64,000 nt of DNA, taken from the NCBI RefSeq assembly GCF_000722635.1, contig NZ_JOKH01000001.1, positions 1,215,110 to 1,279,109 on the forward strand. Reading direction: 5' to 3'. The position numbers were made by a program, and so were the translations under genes. This document shows, piece by piece, positions 43,008-56,589 of this stretch. Below the pieces are notes generated by a model. It saw only the letters and a program-made list of their open reading frames with translations. It was not told the origin of the DNA and did no database searches. The DNA comes from Endozoicomonas numazuensis (GTDB taxonomy: Bacteria; Pseudomonadota; Gammaproteobacteria; Pseudomonadales; Endozoicomonadaceae). The stretch's first letter is position 1, and each line of letters begins with the position of its first letter.

Positions 43008-44861
43008 ATGTCTCATAAGCTGCATATTGCAGTTGCACTGGCAACTGCAAGTCTGGCGGGTACAATTCAGGCTAATGAAGCTACTGAATTGGAAGAGGTG
43101 GTAGTAACCGCTTCAAGAACCGCGCAGTCCGTTGATGAAGCTCTGGCACCCGTTACTGTTATTACCCGAGAAGATATTGAGCGGAGCCAGGCGACGAGTG
43201 TACCAGAGTTATTGAGCAAAACACCCAGCATGCAGATTTCAACTTATGGTGGGGCGGGGAGTCTTCCAAATGTATATCTGCGTGGAACAAGTACTCCTCA
43301 AACTCTGGTGTTGATTGATGGAATGAAAGTCAATGCTCCCAGCAGTGGTAGTGCCCCTTTGCAGTATATTGATCCTAGCCAGATTGAGCGTATTGAAATC
43401 GTTCGCGGTCCGCGTTCTAGTCTTTATGGAGCCGATGCCATTGGTGGTGTTATTCAAATTTTTACCCGAAAAGGGACTCAGAAGCCTAAGCTGAGCCTCA
43501 AAGTTGGAACAGGGTCGAGAAATACAGGTGAGTATGGCATCAATTTCAGTGGTAGCAGTACTGATGTTCGATACAATCTGGGAGCCAACCTTTATGAGAC
43601 AGGGGGGTATGATAATACTCTGGAATTGAAGGATGGAGATGGCGATAAAGATGCCTACAGAAACAAATCTGTGTTTGGTAGCGTATCAAAGCATTTTTCT
43701 AACGGTCTGGAAGTAGGGGGAGCATTCTCACATGCCGAAGGTAAGTCTGAGTATGATAATAATTACCCTGCTGTGGACTATACAACACAACCTTATAATA
43801 TTTTCCGTATAGCCAATGCGAGTGTCTATACCTCTATTCCAGTAACAGAAGCATGGTCTACAAGGGTCGATGCAGGTTATATGGAAGAGTTATCAAGAGG
43901 TAATGTCATCGATAATAGTACAGGTGAGTCATCCGACGATTATTTTTCGAATAACAAGCGTTACTCTATCAGCTGGAAAAATGATATCGCATGGCACGAG
44001 TCTCAATATTTGATAGCTGGCGTGGATTACAGCAAGGATCAGTATGATGGAAGTACTGACTACAAAGATGACTCCAGAGATAATACCGGTGTCTTTGTTC
44101 AAAATACATCATATCTTGGTAACAGTGATCTGGAGCTCAGTTTAAGAAATGATAAAAATGAAGCCTATGGTTCGAATACAACAGGAGGAGCCTCCCTGGG
44201 CTATGACATCGCTAGCGAGTTGAGACTAATCCTCTCTTATGGAAAGGCATTCAGAGCACCCACACTGTCAGATCTTTATTATCCATTTGGAGGCAACTCA
44301 AAGCTTAAACCAGAAAAGTCTGAGAACTATGAAGCAGCTTTGAAAGGTAAGCTGGCAGATTACAACTGGGGACTCTCAGCTTTCCAAAATAACATGGATG
44401 ACATGATTATCTATGACACTAATGTGAATCAATCACAAAATGTTGAAAAAGCAAGAATCAGAGGTGTTGAATTTACCATTCAAACCCAGACCCTTGGCTG
44501 GGATTTAAATTCCAGCCTTTCTCTTCTTGATCCAGAGAATCGTACTGCTACAGATAAAGGTAAAGTACTGATTTACAGAGCTAAGCAACTCTTCAGATTG
44601 GATGTGGATAAGCAGTTTAATCGACTCGGCTTGGGAGCTACATTCAGGGCGCAAGGAAAGTCTTATAAAGATGCAGCGAATCAAGTCGAGGTTGCAGGCT
44701 TTGGTACTGTGGATTTGAGAATGAGTGTTGATGTGGCCCCTGAGTTAAAAGCTGGTCTGAAAGTTGTCAACCTGTTTGATAAGGAGTATCAGGCAGTATA
44801 TGGCTACCGAGGAGAGCCTTCAGGTGTGTTTGTTACTTTTACATGGACACCCGAAATATAA
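43008..44861 (+). CDS. btuB: TonB-dependent vitamin B12 receptor (617 aa)
   Basis: An outer-membrane importer driven by TonB. Signal peptide to about residue 22 (ALATASLAGTIQANEA), TonB box-like EEVVVTASR, plug domain with DIERSQATSVPELLSKTPSM and IEIVRGPRSSLYGADAIGG, then a beta-barrel of 22 strands. It ends GVFVTFTWTPEI, where most such barrels end in an aromatic residue. It is co-transcribed with btuF and regulated by the riboswitch. A terminator-like hairpin follows. Confidence 0.93.
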   Translation: MSHKLHIAVALATASLAGTIQANEATELEEVVVTASRTAQSVDEALAPVTVITREDIERSQATSVPELLSKTPSMQISTYGGAGSLPNVYLRGTSTPQTLVLIDGMKVNAPSSGSAPLQYIDPSQIERIEIVRGPRSSLYGADAIGGVIQIFTRKGTQKPKLSLKVGTGSRNTGEYGINFSGSSTDVRYNLGANLYETGGYDNTLELKDGDGDKDAYRNKSVFGSVSKHFSNGLEVGGAFSHAEGKSEYDNNYPAVDYTTQPYNIFRIANASVYTSIPVTEAWSTRVDAGYMEELSRGNVIDNSTGESSDDYFSNNKRYSISWKNDIAWHESQYLIAGVDYSKDQYDGSTDYKDDSRDNTGVFVQNTSYLGNSDLELSLRNDKNEAYGSNTTGGASLGYDIASELRLILSYGKAFRAPTLSDLYYPFGGNSKLKPEKSENYEAALKGKLADYNWGLSAFQNNMDDMIIYDTNVNQSQNVEKARIRGVEFTIQTQTLGWDLNSSLSLLDPENRTATDKGKVLIYRAKQLFRLDVDKQFNRLGLGATFRAQGKSYKDAANQVEVAGFGTVDLRMSVDVAPELKAGLKVVNLFDKEYQAVYGYRGEPSGVFVTFTWTPEI

Positions 44862-47627: not shown

Positions 47628-48101
47628 ATGACCAGGCCGATCCGTTTTTCTTTCCCTGTGAGCCTATGGGCCAGGCTTATCATGATGCTGACACTGGTGT
47701 TCTCGGTGCAGGTTATGGCAGAAGATGAAGTTTATACCGGTTTTTTTAGCGACAAGGCTGTTAGCGGCTATGACCCGGTGGCTTACTTCACTGAAGGTAA
47801 GCCCGTAAAAGGTTCAGATAAGTTCACTACCCGTTATAAAGAGGCTACCTGGTACTTCAACAGTGCAGAGCATAAAAAACTGTTTCTGGATAACCCCGAA
47901 AAATATGCACCTCAATACGGTGGCTATTGTGCCTGGGCAGTAGCTAAAGGCGATACGGCCAGTGCTGACCCTCATCAATGGACCATTGAAGATGGCAAGC
48001 TCTATATGAATTACAATGCCTCCATTCAGAAAGAATGGGCCAAAGATAAAGTGAATCTTATTAAAGATGCTGATAACAACTGGCCCAACGTCCTGAAGTA
48101 A
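47628..48101 (+). CDS. Exported YHS domain protein (157 aa)
   Basis: A signal peptide (LIMMLTLVFSVQVMAEDE) is followed by a YHS fold: GYDPVAYFTEGKPVKGSD, then YKEATWYFNSAEHKKLFLDN, then PEKYAPQYGGYCAWAVAKGD. The family is thought to bind metals, often copper-related, or to sense them. I start at ATG 47628; an upstream TTG at 47604 adds eight residues. It is 87 bp before the DoxX-like gene. Confidence 0.8.
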   Translation: MTRPIRFSFPVSLWARLIMMLTLVFSVQVMAEDEVYTGFFSDKAVSGYDPVAYFTEGKPVKGSDKFTTRYKEATWYFNSAEHKKLFLDNPEKYAPQYGGYCAWAVAKGDTASADPHQWTIEDGKLYMNYNASIQKEWAKDKVNLIKDADNNWPNVLK

Positions 48102-48188
48102 AAAACCTGATAATAATTTACTAGTAAATTGTTCTCACGACACTGGTTGGTTAGAGTTCGCGCTAACCGGTGTCTGGAAACCTTGATC

Positions 48189-48707
48189 ATGAAAAAACAA
48201 ATCATACAAGTATTCAGCTGGTTAACCACACTCTGGATCGTCAAAGTCTTTCTATCGTCATTGCCTTACAAATTCACTGGCCATCCCGATACCCAGCATA
48301 TCTTCGGAACGATTGGTCAATGGATGCAGGGAGTGCTTGGTCAGTCAATTGGAGAGTGGTTTATCCAATATGGTGCTTATGCGGTAGGTACGTCCGAGCT
48401 ACTTATATCAATACTTCTGCTGTCGCCTGTTGCTTTATTTGTCAAGAATAAAGTCGCTGGATCTTCAGGGAGAATGACTCAGAGCCTCATTCATTGTGTT
48501 GGAGGCTTTGCGGCATCAGGAGTGATGCTGGGCGCAGTGTTCTTCCATCTAGCTACACCTTTGGGTATTGAAGTTCTGCACCAGGGACAGAGTGACGGTG
48601 GTTCCCTGTTTTATGCTGCCGTATCCATTTTGGTATTGGGTCTGGTGATGGCCGTTGCGAACTTCTCACTGCTGAATGAAGAAAGGCAGGCGAGAGCCGC
48701 CCTATAA
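48189..48707 (+). CDS. DoxX-like membrane protein (172 aa)
   Basis: Four membrane helices: FSWLTTLWIVKVFLSSLPYK, WFIQYGAYAVGTSELLISIL, CVGGFAASGVMLGAVFFHLA, and AAVSILVLGLVMAVANFSLL. LPYKFTGHPDTQHIF is the conserved loop of the DoxX/MauE-like group. I start at ATG 48189. Function unknown; related proteins take part in membrane redox or thiosulfate metabolism. It is 35 bp before the first ATP-grasp gene. Confidence 0.6.
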   Translation: MKKQIIQVFSWLTTLWIVKVFLSSLPYKFTGHPDTQHIFGTIGQWMQGVLGQSIGEWFIQYGAYAVGTSELLISILLLSPVALFVKNKVAGSSGRMTQSLIHCVGGFAASGVMLGAVFFHLATPLGIEVLHQGQSDGGSLFYAAVSILVLGLVMAVANFSLLNEERQARAAL

Positions 48708-48742
48708 CGCCTTCAGGACAGCTACATTAGGATGTGGTCATT

Positions 48743-49597
48743 ATGATTATTCGTTCATTACTGGTTCTGGGGTTTATCTGGCAGGCCTTAAAACAAAGAG
48801 TGAAGCCCTGGCAGTTTTTTCAATTGAATGCTGACTACTTCAATGATGATAAGGGGCTCTATTCCAAACTTGATATGGATCAGTCGATTCCCAGGCGGTG
48901 GCGTTTAAAGCAATACCTGGATACCGATGACATAAGGCCAGAGCATTACCCGGTTTTTCTGAAACCAGAGTGGGGGCAAAACTCTGCCGGTGTCATAAGA
49001 ATCGATAATGAGATTCAGCTGGAAGCCGCAAGAGCGAATCGCAGTCAGGAAAGTGTGCCCTATTTAATACAGGAGAGTGCGCAGGAGAAAAGAGAGTTTG
49101 AGGTGTTCGTGATTCGTTCTCTGGATTCAACAAACGGCTTTAAAACACTGTCTGTGACACAAGTGATGAATACCAGTAATGACTCACATCCAGTGAATGG
49201 CATCTACAACAGGGAAACTTTTTATCTGGATAAAACCTCTGAACTGAGCAAGGAGCAAATGGACACACTTGGCGGGCATCTGAGTCAGGCAGGAAACTTC
49301 CGAATAGCTCGTTATGGTATCAGAGCAGACAATATTGAAGCGCTGGCCCAAGGGACGTTCAAAATATTTGAAGTTAACCTGTTCCTCCCCATGCCCCTGG
49401 TGCTGTTAAGCAAAAATCTTGGAACGCTCGAAAAGTTGAAGTGGGTAGTAGGGCTGACCCGTCAGTTAGCAGAAGTGACCGGTGAAATCCCTTCAACCCA
49501 GAAACGGAAGTCCATTTTTTTCAGAAAGTTGTTAGTTCTCAACCGACTGAATTTAAAGAAACTGTCAGCCAAGCCAGAAGAGGAGATGGTACTGTGA
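48743..49597 (+). CDS. ATP-grasp domain protein 1 (284 aa)
   Basis: This looks like an ATP-dependent carboxylate-amine ligase. The Lys of YPVFLKPEWGQNSAGVIRID and the glycine-rich loop after it sit in the usual ATP-binding place. REFEVFVIRS matches the second strand, and ARYGIRADNIEALAQGTFKI with FEVNLFLPMPL the metal-binding Asp/Glu-Asn pair. An N-terminal hydrophobic stretch (MIIRSLLVLGFIWQALKQ) suggests a membrane anchor. The next gene starts 4 bases before its stop codon (GTGA), so translation is coupled. The substrate is unknown. Confidence 0.65.
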   Translation: MIIRSLLVLGFIWQALKQRVKPWQFFQLNADYFNDDKGLYSKLDMDQSIPRRWRLKQYLDTDDIRPEHYPVFLKPEWGQNSAGVIRIDNEIQLEAARANRSQESVPYLIQESAQEKREFEVFVIRSLDSTNGFKTLSVTQVMNTSNDSHPVNGIYNRETFYLDKTSELSKEQMDTLGGHLSQAGNFRIARYGIRADNIEALAQGTFKIFEVNLFLPMPLVLLSKNLGTLEKLKWVVGLTRQLAEVTGEIPSTQKRKSIFFRKLLVLNRLNLKKLSAKPEEEMVL

Positions 49598-50502
49598 AGT
49601 TCATTAAGAAAGCGGTCTACAGTTTCATCAGTCAGAAGTTCATGAATGGCTGCACTCAGTACAACTCACTGGAAGTACGCAAGAGTTGTCGCTCAAAAGC
49701 TCAGGCAAGGTCCGCCTTCAGCAATAATGATATTCCTCATGCCCAGGGTGAAATCTTCATCAATCCATTGAATGCCATTCGTTTTGCCAAACAGCATGGC
49801 TTTCCTCTGGTGGTTAAGCCCAATGTAGGGGGCTTTTCAAGAGGCAGTTATTTTCCTATTCGTAACTTTCGGGAATTATGGAAAGCGGCTCTGCTGGCCA
49901 AAATCTGGTGGCCATCCAGTGTGGTAGAGGAGTATCTTGAAGGTAAAAACTACCGGGTACTGGTCGCCAATGGAAAAGTAGTATCAGTGATTCAGCGCTT
50001 TGCGCCATTTGTAACTGGCAATGGCCAGGAATCGATTAGCTCCCTCATTGATCAGGAAAACGCTATTCGTAAAGAAATGGGGCTGTTGGACTGCATGTAT
50101 CCTCTTCAGAAAAGTGAGCAGACCCAAAAGTATTTGGCGAAACAGGGGTATGACTTGAGCTCAGTGCCAGCAGAGCGAGAGCAGGTAAAATTGTTTCATA
50201 GGATTGCTCTGGCACCCGGTGGTGTGATTGAAACCATCCCGGTTAATAAGGTGGCTAAAGAGAATATACGGTTGATGGAAAAGGTGCTGGATACCTTTGA
50301 TGCCAATATTCTCGGTATCGATGTCATCCTGGAAAAAGGTATAGAGCACAGTCATGAAGATCAGAAATGTATTCTTCTGGAAGTGAATTCCCGTCCCTAC
50401 GTGAAAATGCACGACTACCCCCGATATGGCAAAAAAGAAGATATCTCCGGGGTGTTTGAAGAGCTGGACAAACTCCAGGTCGCCCAGGCTGATATTTTCT
50501 GA
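49594..50502 (+). CDS. ATP-grasp ligase 2, cyanophycin synthetase-like (302 aa)
   Basis: It resembles the ATP-grasp half of cyanophycin synthetase and glutathione synthetase-type ligases: GFPLVVKPNVGGFSRGS (ATP Lys and glycine loop), VVEEYLEGKNYRVLVANGKV, FVTGNGQESISSLIDQEN, and the C-terminal ILGIDVILEKG with LLEVNSRPYVKMHDYPRYG. That C-terminal block is the signature of cyanophycin-type ligases acting on amino acids. It lacks the Mur-ligase half of CphA. The start is GTG 49594, overlapping the first ATP-grasp gene. The likely chemistry is peptide or amide bond formation; the substrate is unknown. Confidence 0.75.
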   Translation: MKFIKKAVYSFISQKFMNGCTQYNSLEVRKSCRSKAQARSAFSNNDIPHAQGEIFINPLNAIRFAKQHGFPLVVKPNVGGFSRGSYFPIRNFRELWKAALLAKIWWPSSVVEEYLEGKNYRVLVANGKVVSVIQRFAPFVTGNGQESISSLIDQENAIRKEMGLLDCMYPLQKSEQTQKYLAKQGYDLSSVPAEREQVKLFHRIALAPGGVIETIPVNKVAKENIRLMEKVLDTFDANILGIDVILEKGIEHSHEDQKCILLEVNSRPYVKMHDYPRYGKKEDISGVFEELDKLQVAQADIF

Positions 50503-50518
50503 GGCGGGAGCGATAGCA

Positions 50519-51748
50519 GTGCATTACTTTTTTCAGTTCTCAGGTATTCATGCATTTCTGGTCGGGTTGTTGCCATTCTTCCTGCCGACTTTGTTGTGGC
50601 AACAGGGTTATTCACTGACCGAAATCGCAGTGTTTATTGCCCTGTCCGGCATTGCTTACTTCTTTACCCTGATGGTTTGGGAGTACCTGAGATCTGGAAA
50701 AGGCCGCATCTGGGTGGTAAGGGCCTCGTTTTTGACAGAGGTGTTGCTGGTTGCCGGATTATTTTTCTTTCAACAGCTAGCAGACAATGGACTCACCGGT
50801 CTCCTGCTGCTGGCCATTCTGAATGGCGTTTATGGTTGCTTTTACTGGATGGCGCAACGACTGTTGTTCAAGTCTATCAGCCATAGCCGGAATTCAGGTC
50901 AACACTTTGGCAACTTCCAGATATTAGTCGCAGTGATGCTTAAAGTGGGCATTGTAGCGGGGGCTTTTCTCTTAGAGCAGGCCAGTTACACAATTCTGTT
51001 TGTTATTAGCGCACTGATATCTGCGGCAGGTATGGCTCAAACTTATAGAAGCAAGGTGGCTGTCGAAATCAACGCAGCGTTTTCTGCCCCTGTTGTCCGC
51101 TTTTCAGAAGTTCTTCGGTTTCGTGATGGCTTCGGTTCTCGTGGAGTTTTTTTTGCGGACGGCCTGTTTCTGTTCCTGGAAAGTTATTTCTGGACCCTCT
51201 CGCTCTATTTTATCAACAGAGAAAGTCTGCTTGAGCTGGGAGGGATGATGGTGGTTCTGGCGATTGCCGTCGCTGCTCTGTTCAAACTGGTACAGACATT
51301 TATTGACCGCACGGTGGCTATACGACTTTTTCGGGTGGCCATTATTCTCTATGCATTCAGCTGGCTGCTGAGGGGCCTCGTGGATGAAGCTCACTCAACT
51401 CAATTTCAGTATGCCGTCATTCTGGTGGTCGCTTTCCTGACCAGCCTGTTTCGACTGGCATTTAACAAAGTGTTCTTTGATCGTGCCGATAAAACGACTA
51501 CTCATGCCTACCTTTTGCTGAAGAGTTATTGCTCGCAATTAGGTGTGGCTGTTTTGTTCGGTGTTACAGCTTTGCTTCTGAATTCTGGGCAGCCTCCTTT
51601 AGAAGCACTTCAGACTGTGTATTTTGTTTCATCGATTCTGGTTTTGATTTATTTCCGCTATAGCTGGCAGACCCGGTCTTCGACAGTCAGAGCGGGCAAA
51701 AGAATAAAAGCAATTGAAGCGAAAGGGGATTCGTATCATGCATGCTGA
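50519..51748 (+). CDS. MFS-type transporter (409 aa)
   Basis: A 12-helix transporter (IHAFLVGLLPFFLPTLLWQQ, IALSGIAYFFTLMVWEYL, LLLLAILNGVYGCFYWMAQ). I start at GTG 50519, which has GGGAG at 50506 and is 16 bp after the previous stop; an upstream ATG at 50426 would overlap the ATP-grasp gene by 77 bp. Its place after two ligases suggests it exports their product. The DinB-like gene starts within its last codons. Confidence 0.7.
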   Translation: MHYFFQFSGIHAFLVGLLPFFLPTLLWQQGYSLTEIAVFIALSGIAYFFTLMVWEYLRSGKGRIWVVRASFLTEVLLVAGLFFFQQLADNGLTGLLLLAILNGVYGCFYWMAQRLLFKSISHSRNSGQHFGNFQILVAVMLKVGIVAGAFLLEQASYTILFVISALISAAGMAQTYRSKVAVEINAAFSAPVVRFSEVLRFRDGFGSRGVFFADGLFLFLESYFWTLSLYFINRESLLELGGMMVVLAIAVAALFKLVQTFIDRTVAIRLFRVAIILYAFSWLLRGLVDEAHSTQFQYAVILVVAFLTSLFRLAFNKVFFDRADKTTTHAYLLLKSYCSQLGVAVLFGVTALLLNSGQPPLEALQTVYFVSSILVLIYFRYSWQTRSSTVRAGKRIKAIEAKGDSYHAC

Positions 51749-52271
51749 TTTTGAATTGATACTTGAGGGTAATCAGGAAGCGGTTGAGCAGTTAATGGGT
51801 TTTGTTTCAGGCCTGAGTTCAGAGGACTATCGGTTCAGAGACTCAGAGCTGTTTCAAAGTACAATAGGTCAGCATCTGCGTCATGTTCTGGATCTATATG
51901 AGGCTATCCGATCACCTGCAGTAGAGGGGGCGGTGGACTATGACCTCAGACGTCGAGGCTTGTTGCTGGAGCATGAAAAGAATGCCGGCCTGGCCGAGTT
52001 GAAGGATTTACAGCAATGGCTTCAGGCATTGAAAGCCGATGATCTGGCGGTTGAGGTCGAGATGAAAACAGAAGTTCTCTTGTCAGAAAACAGCAGTGTG
52101 AGATTGAAATCGAGTCTGGCAAGAGAGTTGATTTTTGCCAGTAGTCATTTGACCCATCATCTGGCGCTGATGGCCACAATAGCAAAAGTAGCGGGCAACA
52201 ACATCGACCCATCCGTGGGTATGGCGCCCGCTACTTCCAGTTTTACCAGAAGTCAGACGGTTGTTTCCTAA
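51738..52271 (+). CDS. DinB-like domain protein (177 aa)
   Basis: A four-helix bundle of the DinB/YfiT kind, which often binds metal through three His. Candidates are STIGQHLRHVLDLYEAI and the C-terminal SSHLTHHLALM. Some relatives are thiol-dependent transferases. It starts (ATG 51738) 11 bases before the MFS stop codon, so it is translationally coupled. Its stop codon TAA lies at the first bases of the repeat at 52269. Confidence 0.6.
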   Translation: MHADFELILEGNQEAVEQLMGFVSGLSSEDYRFRDSELFQSTIGQHLRHVLDLYEAIRSPAVEGAVDYDLRRRGLLLEHEKNAGLAELKDLQQWLQALKADDLAVEVEMKTEVLLSENSSVRLKSSLARELIFASSHLTHHLALMATIAKVAGNNIDPSVGMAPATSSFTRSQTVVS

Positions 52272-54124: not shown

Positions 54125-54817
54125 TCAGGCAGGACTGAGCTCAAGCACGGAGTGTCCCCAGTCATCCTGCCAAATATCGGCTTTTTTGACGGACAGTGGC
54201 TGTTTAAAGTCAGGACCGTTAATCACCAGAGAATGAAAGTCGCCTTCTTCTCCGGTAGGGCAGATGCCTTTAGCTTCAATCTCATCTGCCAGCGATGGTG
54301 TCAGGATCTGTCCCAGAAAACTCTGATCCAGAGACTCATTCTTGACGCTGACAATCATAGTTTCCTGACCTGCTGAGAACATATCTTTCAGCAGCTGTTT
54401 GCGGTCATAGTGCCAGAGTGGGTAGCAAGTCTGTATGGCGGTCTCTTCCAGAATACGGTCGTACCAATCTTTGTGGGCATCCAGATCGATGTCGCCAAAA
54501 GCCAGGTGGCTGACAGAATACTCATCGATAGCCGTTGCCAGTGCCTTTTTTAAACCCTGTTCATAACCACCGAACCCGGCAGAACCAAAAATAATAGGGG
54601 TTCCCAGACAATCAGCCTGAGCTTGTAAAACATCCTGGTGCAGTCCATGGGCACTGGTTCTTTGTTCACCTTCCTTGAGCATGGTCAGAAGGCAAGCTGG
54701 TTTTGCACCGCTTTGACTGGAAACCCATCGAGCAAAGCAACCGTCTTTGCCGCCACTCCAGGAAGAGGCAAAAAAAGCCCCTGAAGAGGGCAGGGTAGCT
54801 TGGGGAGAAATATTCAT
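54125..54817 (-). CDS. Dph6-related ATP pyrophosphatase (230 aa)
   Basis: It belongs to the N-type ATP pyrophosphatase group that includes diphthine-ammonia ligase. The PP-loop motif is SWSGGKDGCFARW, and LTMLKEGEQRTSAHGLHQDV and HLAFGDIDLDAHKDWYDRIL follow. C-terminally, EGDFHSLVINGPDF is the family signature. Bacteria have no diphthamide, so another amide-forming or ATP-hydrolysing role is likely. It is 1 base from pxpA (overlap at 54817), so it is the last gene of the pxp operon. Confidence 0.8.
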   Translation of the reverse strand: MNISPQATLPSSGAFFASSWSGGKDGCFARWVSSQSGAKPACLLTMLKEGEQRTSAHGLHQDVLQAQADCLGTPIIFGSAGFGGYEQGLKKALATAIDEYSVSHLAFGDIDLDAHKDWYDRILEETAIQTCYPLWHYDRKQLLKDMFSAGQETMIVSVKNESLDQSFLGQILTPSLADEIEAKGICPTGEEGDFHSLVINGPDFKQPLSVKKADIWQDDWGHSVLELSPA

Positions 54818-55596
54818 TACTGCGCCTGAATCGTTTGAATCGTGATGCCCTGAGCCTGAAGAAAACGTTCACAGCCACGGACGAAGTCCAGAGCCCAGGG
54901 ACCGTCACCGTGAATACAGAGTGTGTCTGCCTGGATAGCAATTATCTGGCCATCCAGTGAGGTCACTTGGTTGTGCAAAACCATGTCCCTGATCTGTTCC
55001 AGGGACTTTTGCTTGTCTTCAAGCATTGCTCCGGTCTGGTCCCTGGGAGTGAGCTGGCCATTACTCTGATAGCTGCGGTCGGCAAAGACTTCGCTGGCTG
55101 TTCTCAGGCCAATAGTCTCGGCCTGGGATATAAGACAGCTACCAGCTAACCCATAGAGAATCAGTTCAGGATTAAATTGGTAGACTGCTTCCGCAATGGC
55201 TTTGGCAAGGTCTGGGTCTCGGGCTGCCATATTGTACAGAGCGCCGTGAGGTTTTACATGGTGCAGTTGACTGCCTTCGGCTGTTACAAAGGCACTCAAT
55301 GCGCCTATTTGATAGAGCGTCAGAGTGTAGGCTTCTTCCGGGCTTATGTTTATATTTCTGCGACCAAACCCCTGAAGGTCTGGTAATCCGGGATGGGCAC
55401 CGACAGCGACATGGTGCTCCAAAGCCAGCTTTACCGTCTTGGCCATGATGTTCGGGTCACCGGCATGAAAGCCACAGGCAATATTGGCCGAACTGATATA
55501 CGGCATGATTCCGGCATCGTTGCCCATGACATACTGGCCAAAACTTTCACCCATGTCGCAGTTCAGATCCAGTGTCGGTGCTTTATCTGTGTTCAT
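54817..55596 (-). CDS. pxpA: 5-oxoprolinase subunit A, LamB/YcsF family (259 aa)
   Basis: With PxpB and PxpC it hydrolyses 5-oxoproline to glutamate using ATP. Family segments are [66 protein letters not shown] and the C-terminal [15 protein letters not shown]. It follows pxpC by 3 bases. Confidence 0.93.
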
Positions 55597-55599
55597 TTT

Positions 55600-56589
55600 T
55601 TAGCTCACGGCTGTTTGGATACGGTTCCAGTAATGTTTCGCGGCAATGGCCAGGCGATTCAGGCTGATTCTCTGTTCTATCAGCTCTCGCTGTGCTTCTT
55701 CAACACTGACTTCCTGAAAAGTCAGGGTGTCGGTTGGTTTTAACTGGGCGACTCTGGGCAGATCTGCAGAAATAATATTCCCGATTTTGGGGTAACCGCC
55801 CGTGGGTTGGCAATCACTCATCAGAATAATGGGTTGACCATCAGGGGGGATCTGAATGCTGCCGACGGTGGTTCCCTCTGTGATCAGATTTCCAGAGTGA
55901 CTGCTTTCGATCTTTTGTCCGGACAGGCGATAGCCCATGCGATCGGAGTCGGATCGAACGGAGTAGTTCTGATTTTGGAACGTTTTCAGACTCTGATTAG
56001 AAAACCATGAGGCTTGCGGGCCAGAGATATATCGAATGGGCTGAACGTGTTCATGCACTTCAAGAAACGAGATAAATTCATGGCCCAAAGCAATATCAGG
56101 TTTGAAACTTTCCTTTGTTGACCCAGCGTTAAAGCTAAGCTGATCGTTCTCTTTGAGAGCTCTTCCTTCATAACCTCCTATGCCAGCTCTCAGGTATGTA
56201 CTGCAGCTGCCCAAAACTTTATTGACCTGAAATCCATCTTTAATGGCCAGATAGCCACGACAACCCTTTCTCAGGCTGGAGACCTTCAGCGTTTGTCCCG
56301 CTTTAATGGTGGTGACGCAGTGCGTGGAAATAGGATGATTATCTATTGTGGCATTAGCACTACCGCCACTGAGGCAGACAACAGCAGACTTGTGAAATTC
56401 CAGAATGGGTCCAGTGAGTGTGAATTCCAGTACAGGAGAACTCTCAGGATTACCCAGTATCAAGTTGGCTACTCTGACTGCCAGTGTGTCCATGGCTCCG
56501 CTGGTTGAAAAGCCCAGATTGCGAACACCGTACCTCCCCAGATCCTGAACGGTGGTTAGCATGCCGGGGTCTTTGATAGTCAGGCTCAT
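55600..56589 (-). CDS. pxpC: 5-oxoprolinase subunit C, biotin-dependent carboxyltransferase family (329 aa)
   Basis: The KipA-type domain reads MLTTVQDLGRYGVRNLGFST, FTLTGPILEFHKSAVVCLSG, SDRMGYRLSGQKI, and LITEGTTVGSIQIPPDGQPI plus ILMSDCQPTGGYPKIG. It works with PxpB. It ends 3 bp before pxpA. The upstream gap to pxpB (56590-56695) holds most of a family B repeat. Confidence 0.93.
   Translation of the reverse strand: MSLTIKDPGMLTTVQDLGRYGVRNLGFSTSGAMDTLAVRVANLILGNPESSPVLEFTLTGPILEFHKSAVVCLSGGSANATIDNHPISTHCVTTIKAGQTLKVSSLRKGCRGYLAIKDGFQVNKVLGSCSTYLRAGIGGYEGRALKENDQLSFNAGSTKESFKPDIALGHEFISFLEVHEHVQPIRYISGPQASWFSNQSLKTFQNQNYSVRSDSDRMGYRLSGQKIESSHSGNLITEGTTVGSIQIPPDGQPIILMSDCQPTGGYPKIGNIISADLPRVAQLKPTDTLTFQEVSVEEAQRELIEQRISLNRLAIAAKHYWNRIQTAVS

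What the first reader, a model, noticed from the sequence alone, without database searches (positions are those of the whole stretch)
47628..52271. Two ATP-grasp ligases, an exporter and a DinB-like enzyme: candidate undescribed biosynthesis system
Six genes on one strand, four of them tightly spaced or overlapping: YHS, DoxX-like, ATP-grasp 1, ATP-grasp 2 (cyanophycin synthetase-like C-terminus), MFS and DinB-like. Two ligases in series followed by a transporter suggest stepwise amide-bond assembly of a small peptide or amino-acid derivative that is exported, with DinB perhaps transferring a thiol. None of these is a standard operon I can name.
Basis: inference. Interest (0 to 1): 0.75.

Follow-up and report, generated by a model that had tools for sequence, protein, structure and literature searches.

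The report
Taurine-linked double amide-ligase gene cluster
A small set of bacterial genes with two likely amide-bond-forming enzymes and a transporter recurs in marine bacteria, and in some relatives it sits next to enzymes expected to turn cysteine into hypotaurine, so it may build and export an undescribed taurine-type conjugate.

Summary
The six genes are real. The core is AG1 (distantly D-Ala-D-Ala-ligase-like), AG2 (cyanophycin-synthetase/GshAB-like ATP-grasp) and an MFS protein. AG1 and full-length AG2 occur in the same 13 of 95 relatives; AG1 accompanies AG2 in 62 of 63 distinct loci, the other being cut by its contig end. YHS, a small membrane protein and DinB are optional (DinB 16 of 63). 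The clue comes from relatives: in one small-genome gammaproteobacterial family the cluster is DoxX-like, PLP decarboxylase, cysteine dioxygenase, AG1, AG2, VTT. That decarboxylase's best solved relative is human cysteine sulfinate decarboxylase; it is intact in 19 of 22 AG2+ and 0 of 61 AG2- genomes there, and three AG2- genomes carry broken cluster remnants. Three other AG+ genomes have a decarboxylase next to a dioxygenase-like gene on another contig. I infer ligases that join hypotaurine or taurine into an exported conjugate. Against this, no AG+ genome among the window's 95 relatives has a recognisable cysteine dioxygenase, so the amine would have to be imported there. Product, ligation order and transport direction are not shown. 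Ten paper searches found no description.

The parts
47628..48101 (+). YHS-domain protein, NCBIfam NF041384 (YHS domain-containing (seleno)protein), 157 aa; accessory
   Evidence: 168.6 bits against a cut-off of 70; YHS found in 34 of 63 loci, in some on the other strand
48189..48707 (+). small membrane protein called DoxX-like, 172 aa; accessory
   Evidence: family in 43 of 63 loci; Pfam support for DoxX_2 in 1 of 7 members
48743..49597 (+). AG1, divergent ATP-grasp protein, 284 aa, nearest fold D-Ala-D-Ala ligase
   Evidence: Pfam Dala_Dala_lig_C in 13 of 23 family members, best E 4e-6; AlphaFold2 model pLDDT 84, Ddl structures best in Foldseek at query TM about 0.5; Lys and Glu-x-Asn kept in 61 of 61 rows
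49594..50502 (+). AG2, ATP-grasp ligase related to the ATP-grasp domain of cyanophycin synthetase and GshAB, 302 aa
   Evidence: model pLDDT 77, best match 7wae TM 0.74; Lys75, Glu112, Asp243, Glu263, Asn265 in 61 of 61 rows
50519..51748 (+). MFS transporter, 409 aa (start corrected from 50426)
   Evidence: Pfam MFS_1 39.3 bits against 33.4; start by homology and upstream GGGAG; MFS in 40 of 63 loci, a VTT-domain protein instead in 21, neither in 2 of which one is a contig end
51738..52271 (+). DinB-family protein, 177 aa; accessory
   Evidence: Pfam DinB 37.6 bits against 23; 16 of 63 loci; His of GQHxRH and HxxHH kept in the alignment of the 16

Best explanation
AG1, AG2 and the transporter form a two-step, ATP-dependent amide-ligase pathway for a small metabolite containing hypotaurine or taurine. 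In relatives with the full set, cysteine dioxygenase makes cysteine sulfinate, a cysteine-sulfinate-decarboxylase-like PLP enzyme makes hypotaurine, and AG1 and AG2 each activate a carboxylate as an acyl phosphate and join it to an amine, one of the amines being hypotaurine or taurine. The MFS protein (in other lineages a VTT-domain protein) moves the product across the inner membrane. In the window's organism the first two enzymes were not found and the amine would be taken up, plausibly from an animal host. Shown by computation: gene order and conservation, family assignments, kept catalytic residues, co-occurrence and partial joint decay. Inferred: identity of the amine, which ligase uses it, the other building blocks, export rather than import.
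For: Conserved AG1-AG2 pair. DEC ends a few bases before AG1 in L068 and L104; DEC-CDO-AG1-AG2 in 16 of 22 loci of the family of G416. Families: Pyridoxal_deC and CDO_I; DEC of L105 best matches human CSAD, E 3e-71; CDO best matches mammalian cysteine dioxygenase, E 6e-6, with Arg60, His86, His88, His140, His155 and Tyr157 aligned to the same letters in L105. Specificity positions of DEC: W-S-C in 19 of 19 full-length cluster copies, against F-S-Y in CSAD and S-N-F in GAD (read; which positions matter is recalled). Intact cluster-type DEC in 19 of 22 AG2+ and 0 of 61 AG2- genomes of that family, CDO_I in 12 of 83, all AG2+. Remnants of DEC and DoxX-like in three AG2- genomes. DEC profile in 369 class genomes: 6 hits, 5 AG2+; leaving out the two that are in the query, 3 of 4 (p 4e-5), and in these three DEC lies on another contig than AG and beside a CDO-like gene.
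Against: The window genome shows no CDO_I and no DEC at the cut-offs used, and 0 of the 13 AG+ genomes among 95 relatives has CDO_I; DEC-like genes (28-37% identity) are in 3 of 13 AG+ and 4 of 82 AG- relatives. DEC is in 21 of 63 AG2 loci only (19 full length). G882, G886 and G888 have AG2 without intact DEC. Decay is not strictly joint: G870 keeps open AG1 and CDO frames without AG2, G879 keeps DEC and CDO with broken AG1 and AG2. L068's DEC scores GAD1 and CSAD alike. Two of the three unlinked CDO-like proteins do not reach Pfam CDO_I. Tests are not corrected for relatedness. No substrate or product was tested.
Confidence: 0.5

Rival explanations
1. The ligases make an amide or dipeptide from other building blocks, and hypotaurine synthesis is only co-regulated or co-inherited with them, for example because both serve osmotic, oxidative or sulfide stress.
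For: 42 of 63 AG2 loci have no DEC; CDO absent from all 13 AG+ relatives of the window; three AG2+ genomes of the G416 family lack intact DEC.
Against: DEC and CDO are inside the ligase gene run in the G416 family, DEC abuts AG1 in two further lineages, and three other AG+ genomes have the pair on another contig.
Confidence: 0.22
2. The product is lipid-linked or an envelope modification: AG1, with its hydrophobic N-terminal helix, works at the membrane and the MFS or VTT protein flips the product.
For: AG1 starts with a hydrophobic helix (residues 2-17 in the model); MFS is replaced by a VTT-domain protein in 21 of 63 loci, a family with known lipid scramblases (recalled).
Against: No acyltransferase or lipid enzyme recurs in the cluster among the families found; both ligases resemble enzymes of soluble substrates.
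Confidence: 0.12
3. The decarboxylase makes beta-alanine or GABA (aspartate or glutamate decarboxylase), and the conjugate is a carnosine-like or GABA amide.
For: L068 and L104 have DEC without a CDO in the fetched stretch; L068's DEC scores GAD1 and CSAD alike; L174's best match is GADL1.
Against: CDO stands between DEC and AG1 in 16 of 22 loci of the G416 family and beside the three unlinked DECs; Ser, as in CSAD, at the middle specificity position in 19 of 19.
Confidence: 0.1
4. One reading: a small peptide with DinB as a thiol-transferring core enzyme.
For: DinB overlaps the MFS gene in the window and follows MFS in 16 of 63 loci.
Against: 47 of 63 loci, some of them on short contigs, show no DinB, including all 22 of the G416 family.
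Confidence: 0.03

Closest known systems
ATP-grasp domain of cyanophycin synthetase (CphA1/CphA2) and of GshAB
   Same: AG2 matches this domain over residues 34-284, fold TM 0.74, and keeps the Asp and Glu-x-Asn positions
   Different: AG2 is a 302 aa stand-alone protein without the rest of either enzyme; scores 157.6 of 850 and 100.6 of 425 bits
N-acetylglutaminylglutamine (NAGGN) synthetase
   Same: its C-terminal part aligns with AG2 (70.2 bits)
   Different: cut-off is 569 bits; AG2 covers only model positions 295-528 of 547
D-alanine-D-alanine ligase and L-amino acid ligases with an MFS exporter (bacilysin type, recalled)
   Same: AG1's nearest fold is Ddl; a ligase next to an MFS gene recalls dipeptide pathways
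   Different: AG1 is below the Dala_Dala_lig_C cut-off; two ligases in tandem; no Bac-type genes looked for or seen
Hypotaurine synthesis by cysteine dioxygenase and cysteine sulfinate decarboxylase
   Same: CDO_I and CSAD-like proteins in the clusters of relatives; a bacterial CSAD is known from Synechococcus sp. PCC 7335 (PMC8153620, passages)
   Different: here coupled to two ATP-grasp proteins and a transporter; absent from the window's own genome

Membership tests
ATP-grasp ligases (superfamily) | ATP-grasp fold with ATP-binding Lys and metal-binding Glu-x-Asn | tested here: met
   AG2: family hits and fold; AG1: weak family hits, Ddl fold at TM about 0.5; Lys and Glu-x-Asn in 61 of 61 rows of each. 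A further AG1 position that may correspond to the metal Asp is D in 33 and N in 28 rows
Amide ligase activity | ATP-dependent amide bond formation | not testable with these tools
   needs enzyme assay
Cyanophycin synthetase | full-length match to TIGR02068 (862 positions, cut-off 850 bits) | tested here: not met
   157.6 bits, model positions 211-464 only
Bifunctional glutathione synthetase GshAB | N-terminal glutamate-cysteine ligase part, cut-off 425 bits | tested here: not met
   100.6 bits, positions 488-744 of 756
NAGGN synthetase | full-length match to TIGR03103, cut-off 569 bits | tested here: not met
   70.2 bits
Hypotaurine pathway in relatives | cysteine dioxygenase gene | tested here: met
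   CDO_I over cut-off in 12 of 83 genomes of the G416 family; catalytic positions kept in L105, with Lys for Arg60 in L143
Hypotaurine pathway in relatives | decarboxylase specific for cysteine sulfinate | tested here: inconclusive
   best match CSAD for L105 but GAD1 and CSAD equal for L068; W-S-C at the three positions in 19 of 19, neither the CSAD nor the GAD set in full
Hypotaurine pathway in the window's genome | CDO and DEC present | tested here: not met
   no CDO_I at E 0.001, no DEC at E 1e-40
DinB/BstA-type thiol transferases | DinB fold family with conserved His pattern | tested here: met
   Pfam DinB, His pattern in the 16 aligned
DinB/BstA-type thiol transferases | thiol-transfer activity with a low-molecular-weight thiol | not testable with these tools
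   needs enzyme assay

The most novel reading that the evidence does not exclude
An undescribed class of exported hypotaurine or taurine conjugates made by a pair of stand-alone ATP-grasp ligases, spread through bacteria that live with marine animals, kept even in 1.0 Mb genomes of the size and base composition of clam symbionts, and acting as a sulfur, osmolyte or signal shuttle between symbiont and host.
Probability: 0.33. Interest if true: 0.88.

Novelty: new variant of a known kind. Interest (0 to 1): 0.72.

Why it matters
If right, it gives a first substrate to an uncharacterised ligase pair shared by Endozoicomonas relatives and a family of small-genome gammaproteobacteria, and ties taurine chemistry, abundant in marine animals, to a dedicated bacterial amide pathway. 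It turns 'two ligases and an exporter' into a test with purchasable substrates and a mass-spectrometry target: an amide that carries a sulfinate or sulfonate.

Tried and rejected
Rejected: cyanophycin, glutathione and NAGGN synthesis (scores far below cut-offs). DinB as core (16 of 63). AMP nucleosidase as a pathway part: found in 8 of 63 loci; the 7 that are in the tree fall in one branch and share other neighbours, so it looks like local synteny. Genes upstream of DoxX-like in the G416 family: four of them (354, 115, 202 and 104 aa) persist without stops in the three genomes with cluster remnants, so they look outside the unit. Rfam, promoter and terminator scans gave nothing.

Rows dropped before counting; 7 remote AG2 matches (24-27% identity, 6 genomes); 9 remote matches (E 1e-31 to 2e-35, open frames of 414-951 aa); 35 of 83 genomes matched at E 1e-20; those at 23-26% identity were not counted as cluster-type DEC, and broken copies (G870, G202, G867) not as intact; 9 of 72 loci as duplicates (AG2 at least 99.5% identical). 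L065 (no AG1 on the contig) and L152 (broken). L129 and L139 hold DEC remnants only; they are in the 21 DEC loci but not in the 19 full-length ones. One search's 22 AG2+ include G879, whose AG2 is broken; 1 of 28 loci (L074) is a short partial match and was dropped.

Papers: ten searches listed nothing that I could recognise from titles and abstract starts as a description of this gene set; I did not read the listed papers through, and subscription journals and preprints are mostly not held. Iyer et al. 2009 on ATP-grasp amidoligases (recalled) and Agnello et al. 2013 on decarboxylase specificity (seen only as a citation in PMC8153620) were not held, so an earlier prediction of this cluster cannot be excluded.
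Full report
What is there. The window lies in a 6.34 Mb genome. G006, listed as same genus, holds a contig of the same length (259,222) as the Endozoicomonas arenosclerae record of L048, so the genome is Endozoicomonas or very near it. AG2 is a stand-alone relative of the ATP-grasp domain of cyanophycin synthetase and GshAB. AG1 is a divergent ATP-grasp protein with Ddl as nearest fold, at a query TM-score of only about 0.5. Both keep the ATP-site Lys and Glu-x-Asn in 61 of 61 rows; a further AG1 position that may be the metal Asp is D in 33 and N in 28 rows.

A conserved unit. In 95 relatives, AG1 and full-length AG2 occur in the same 13 genomes, the window's included; 7 remote AG2 matches in 6 other genomes were set aside. 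The genome-collection scan gave 28 loci, 27 full length, among them Endozoicomonas, Parendozoicomonas, Neptunomonas, Amphritea, Psychromonas, Granulosicoccaceae MAGs, Candidatus Spongiihabitans and one Desulfobulbaceae MAG. In 369 class genomes 11 have full-length AG2; in 398 phylum genomes 2. Pooled with the other searches this made 72 loci, 63 distinct: AG1 in 62, DoxX-like 43, MFS 40, YHS 34, DEC 21, VTT 21, CDO 17, DinB 16. These 63 are not a random sample; 22 come from one family searched on purpose. AG1 sought by itself in 210 class genomes gave 4 hits, all of which hold AG2.

The substrate clue. In L068 and L104 a PLP decarboxylase gene ends a few bases before AG1. In the family of G416 the order is DoxX-like, DEC, CDO, AG1, AG2, VTT; DEC-CDO-AG1 is complete in 16 of its 22 loci. 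Pfam calls DEC Pyridoxal_deC and CDO cysteine dioxygenase type I. L105's DEC is closest among solved structures to human CSAD; its CDO is closest to mammalian cysteine dioxygenase, with metal and substrate positions kept and Ala at the cross-link Cys; among 17 CDOs L143 has Lys for Arg60. Dioxygenase plus decarboxylase is the established route to hypotaurine (recalled; a bacterial CSAD is mentioned in PMC8153620, passages). The four genomes of 1.02-1.03 Mb with 29.5-30.2% G+C around the locus resemble the clam symbiont Ca. Vesicomyosocius okutanii (1.02 Mb, 31.6%; PMC3202245, passages); I also recall its exact length as that of G865. That identification is inference.

Co-occurrence in that family. 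Of 83 genomes, 22 have AG2. Cluster-type DEC, at least 63% identical to L105's, is intact in 19, all AG2+; G882, G886 and G888 are AG2+ without it. CDO_I is in 12, all AG2+; the Pfam model misses CDOs that the cluster profile finds. Fisher 6e-16 and 7e-9, not corrected for relatedness. Three AG2- genomes hold broken DEC and DoxX-like pieces in the same place: G870 keeps open AG1 and CDO frames but no detectable AG2 or VTT; G202 and G867 show none of CDO, AG1, AG2, VTT. In G879 AG1 and AG2 are broken while DEC and CDO have no stops. The parts are lost largely, not strictly, together.

A test outside that family. With a three-row DEC profile and a cut-off of 1e-90 set before the run, 6 of 369 class genomes matched: G140, G282, G336, G350, G416, G431. 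The first five are among the 11 AG2+ of the same draw. G336 and G416 are in the query; of the other four, three are AG2+ (hypergeometric 4e-5; two assumed independent lineages are not proven). G431 is of G336's genus, 71% complete, with DEC cut by the contig end where AG1 would follow. In G140, G282 and G350 DEC lies on another contig than AG and beside a CDO-like gene; of these three CDO-like proteins one passes Pfam CDO_I, the other two were found by the cluster profile only. Best solved relatives of these DECs: CSAD for L172, GADL1 for L174. By eye, the three specificity positions read W-S-Y in L172 and L173 and F-S-Y, as in human CSAD, in L174.

Results against. In the window's own circle the link is missing: no CDO_I in any of the 13 AG+ relatives (the one hit over the cut-off is in an AG- genome), and DEC-like genes of 28-37% identity in 3 of 13 AG+ and 4 of 82 AG- genomes. 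The one looked at, in G028, has no CDO beside it. If the substrate is the same there, it must come from outside; taurine is reported as abundant in marine animals (PMC5511178, abstract start in the listing). A tree of joined AG1 and AG2 puts L104 beside the G416 family and L068 at the base of the MFS branch, which would fit DEC as an old partner lost towards the window, but both are long branches and the root is a midpoint; DEC changes at least 5 times, CDO 4, DinB 5, VTT 2.

How it most likely works. AG1 and AG2 carry out two ATP-dependent condensations, one using the amino group of hypotaurine or taurine, and the product leaves through MFS or a VTT protein. Candidatus Thioglobus autotrophicus grows on thiotaurine but not on taurine (PMC6509183, passages), which shows that such compounds matter in SUP05 bacteria but says nothing about these genes. 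YHS, the small membrane protein and DinB look accessory; a redox or thiol role is only suggested by their families.

Verdict.

Noticed in passing
window 54125-56589, - strand: Frames that look by eye like a Dph6-type ATP pyrophosphatase and 5-oxoprolinase subunits (LamB/YcsF and biotin-dependent carboxylase-like); seen only.
   Followed up: no
window 43008-44861, + strand: Frame that looks by eye like a TonB-dependent outer-membrane receptor.
   Followed up: no
L066, L067, L069, L072, L073, L099, L102 (and L065): In Granulosicoccaceae-type loci the MFS gene is followed by an AMP nucleosidase (over its NCBIfam cut-off in L067) and AG1 is preceded by a TIGR02281 aspartic protease in 7 of these 8.
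   Followed up: partly
L148, L149, L150: Genome-reduction remnants: broken DEC and DoxX-like pieces where relatives have the whole cluster, beside persisting upstream genes.
   Followed up: partly
L105 5569-6630 and homologues in the G416 family: A 353-354 aa gene, by eye anthranilate-phosphoribosyltransferase-like, sits upstream of the DoxX-like gene and persists where the cluster has decayed.
   Followed up: partly
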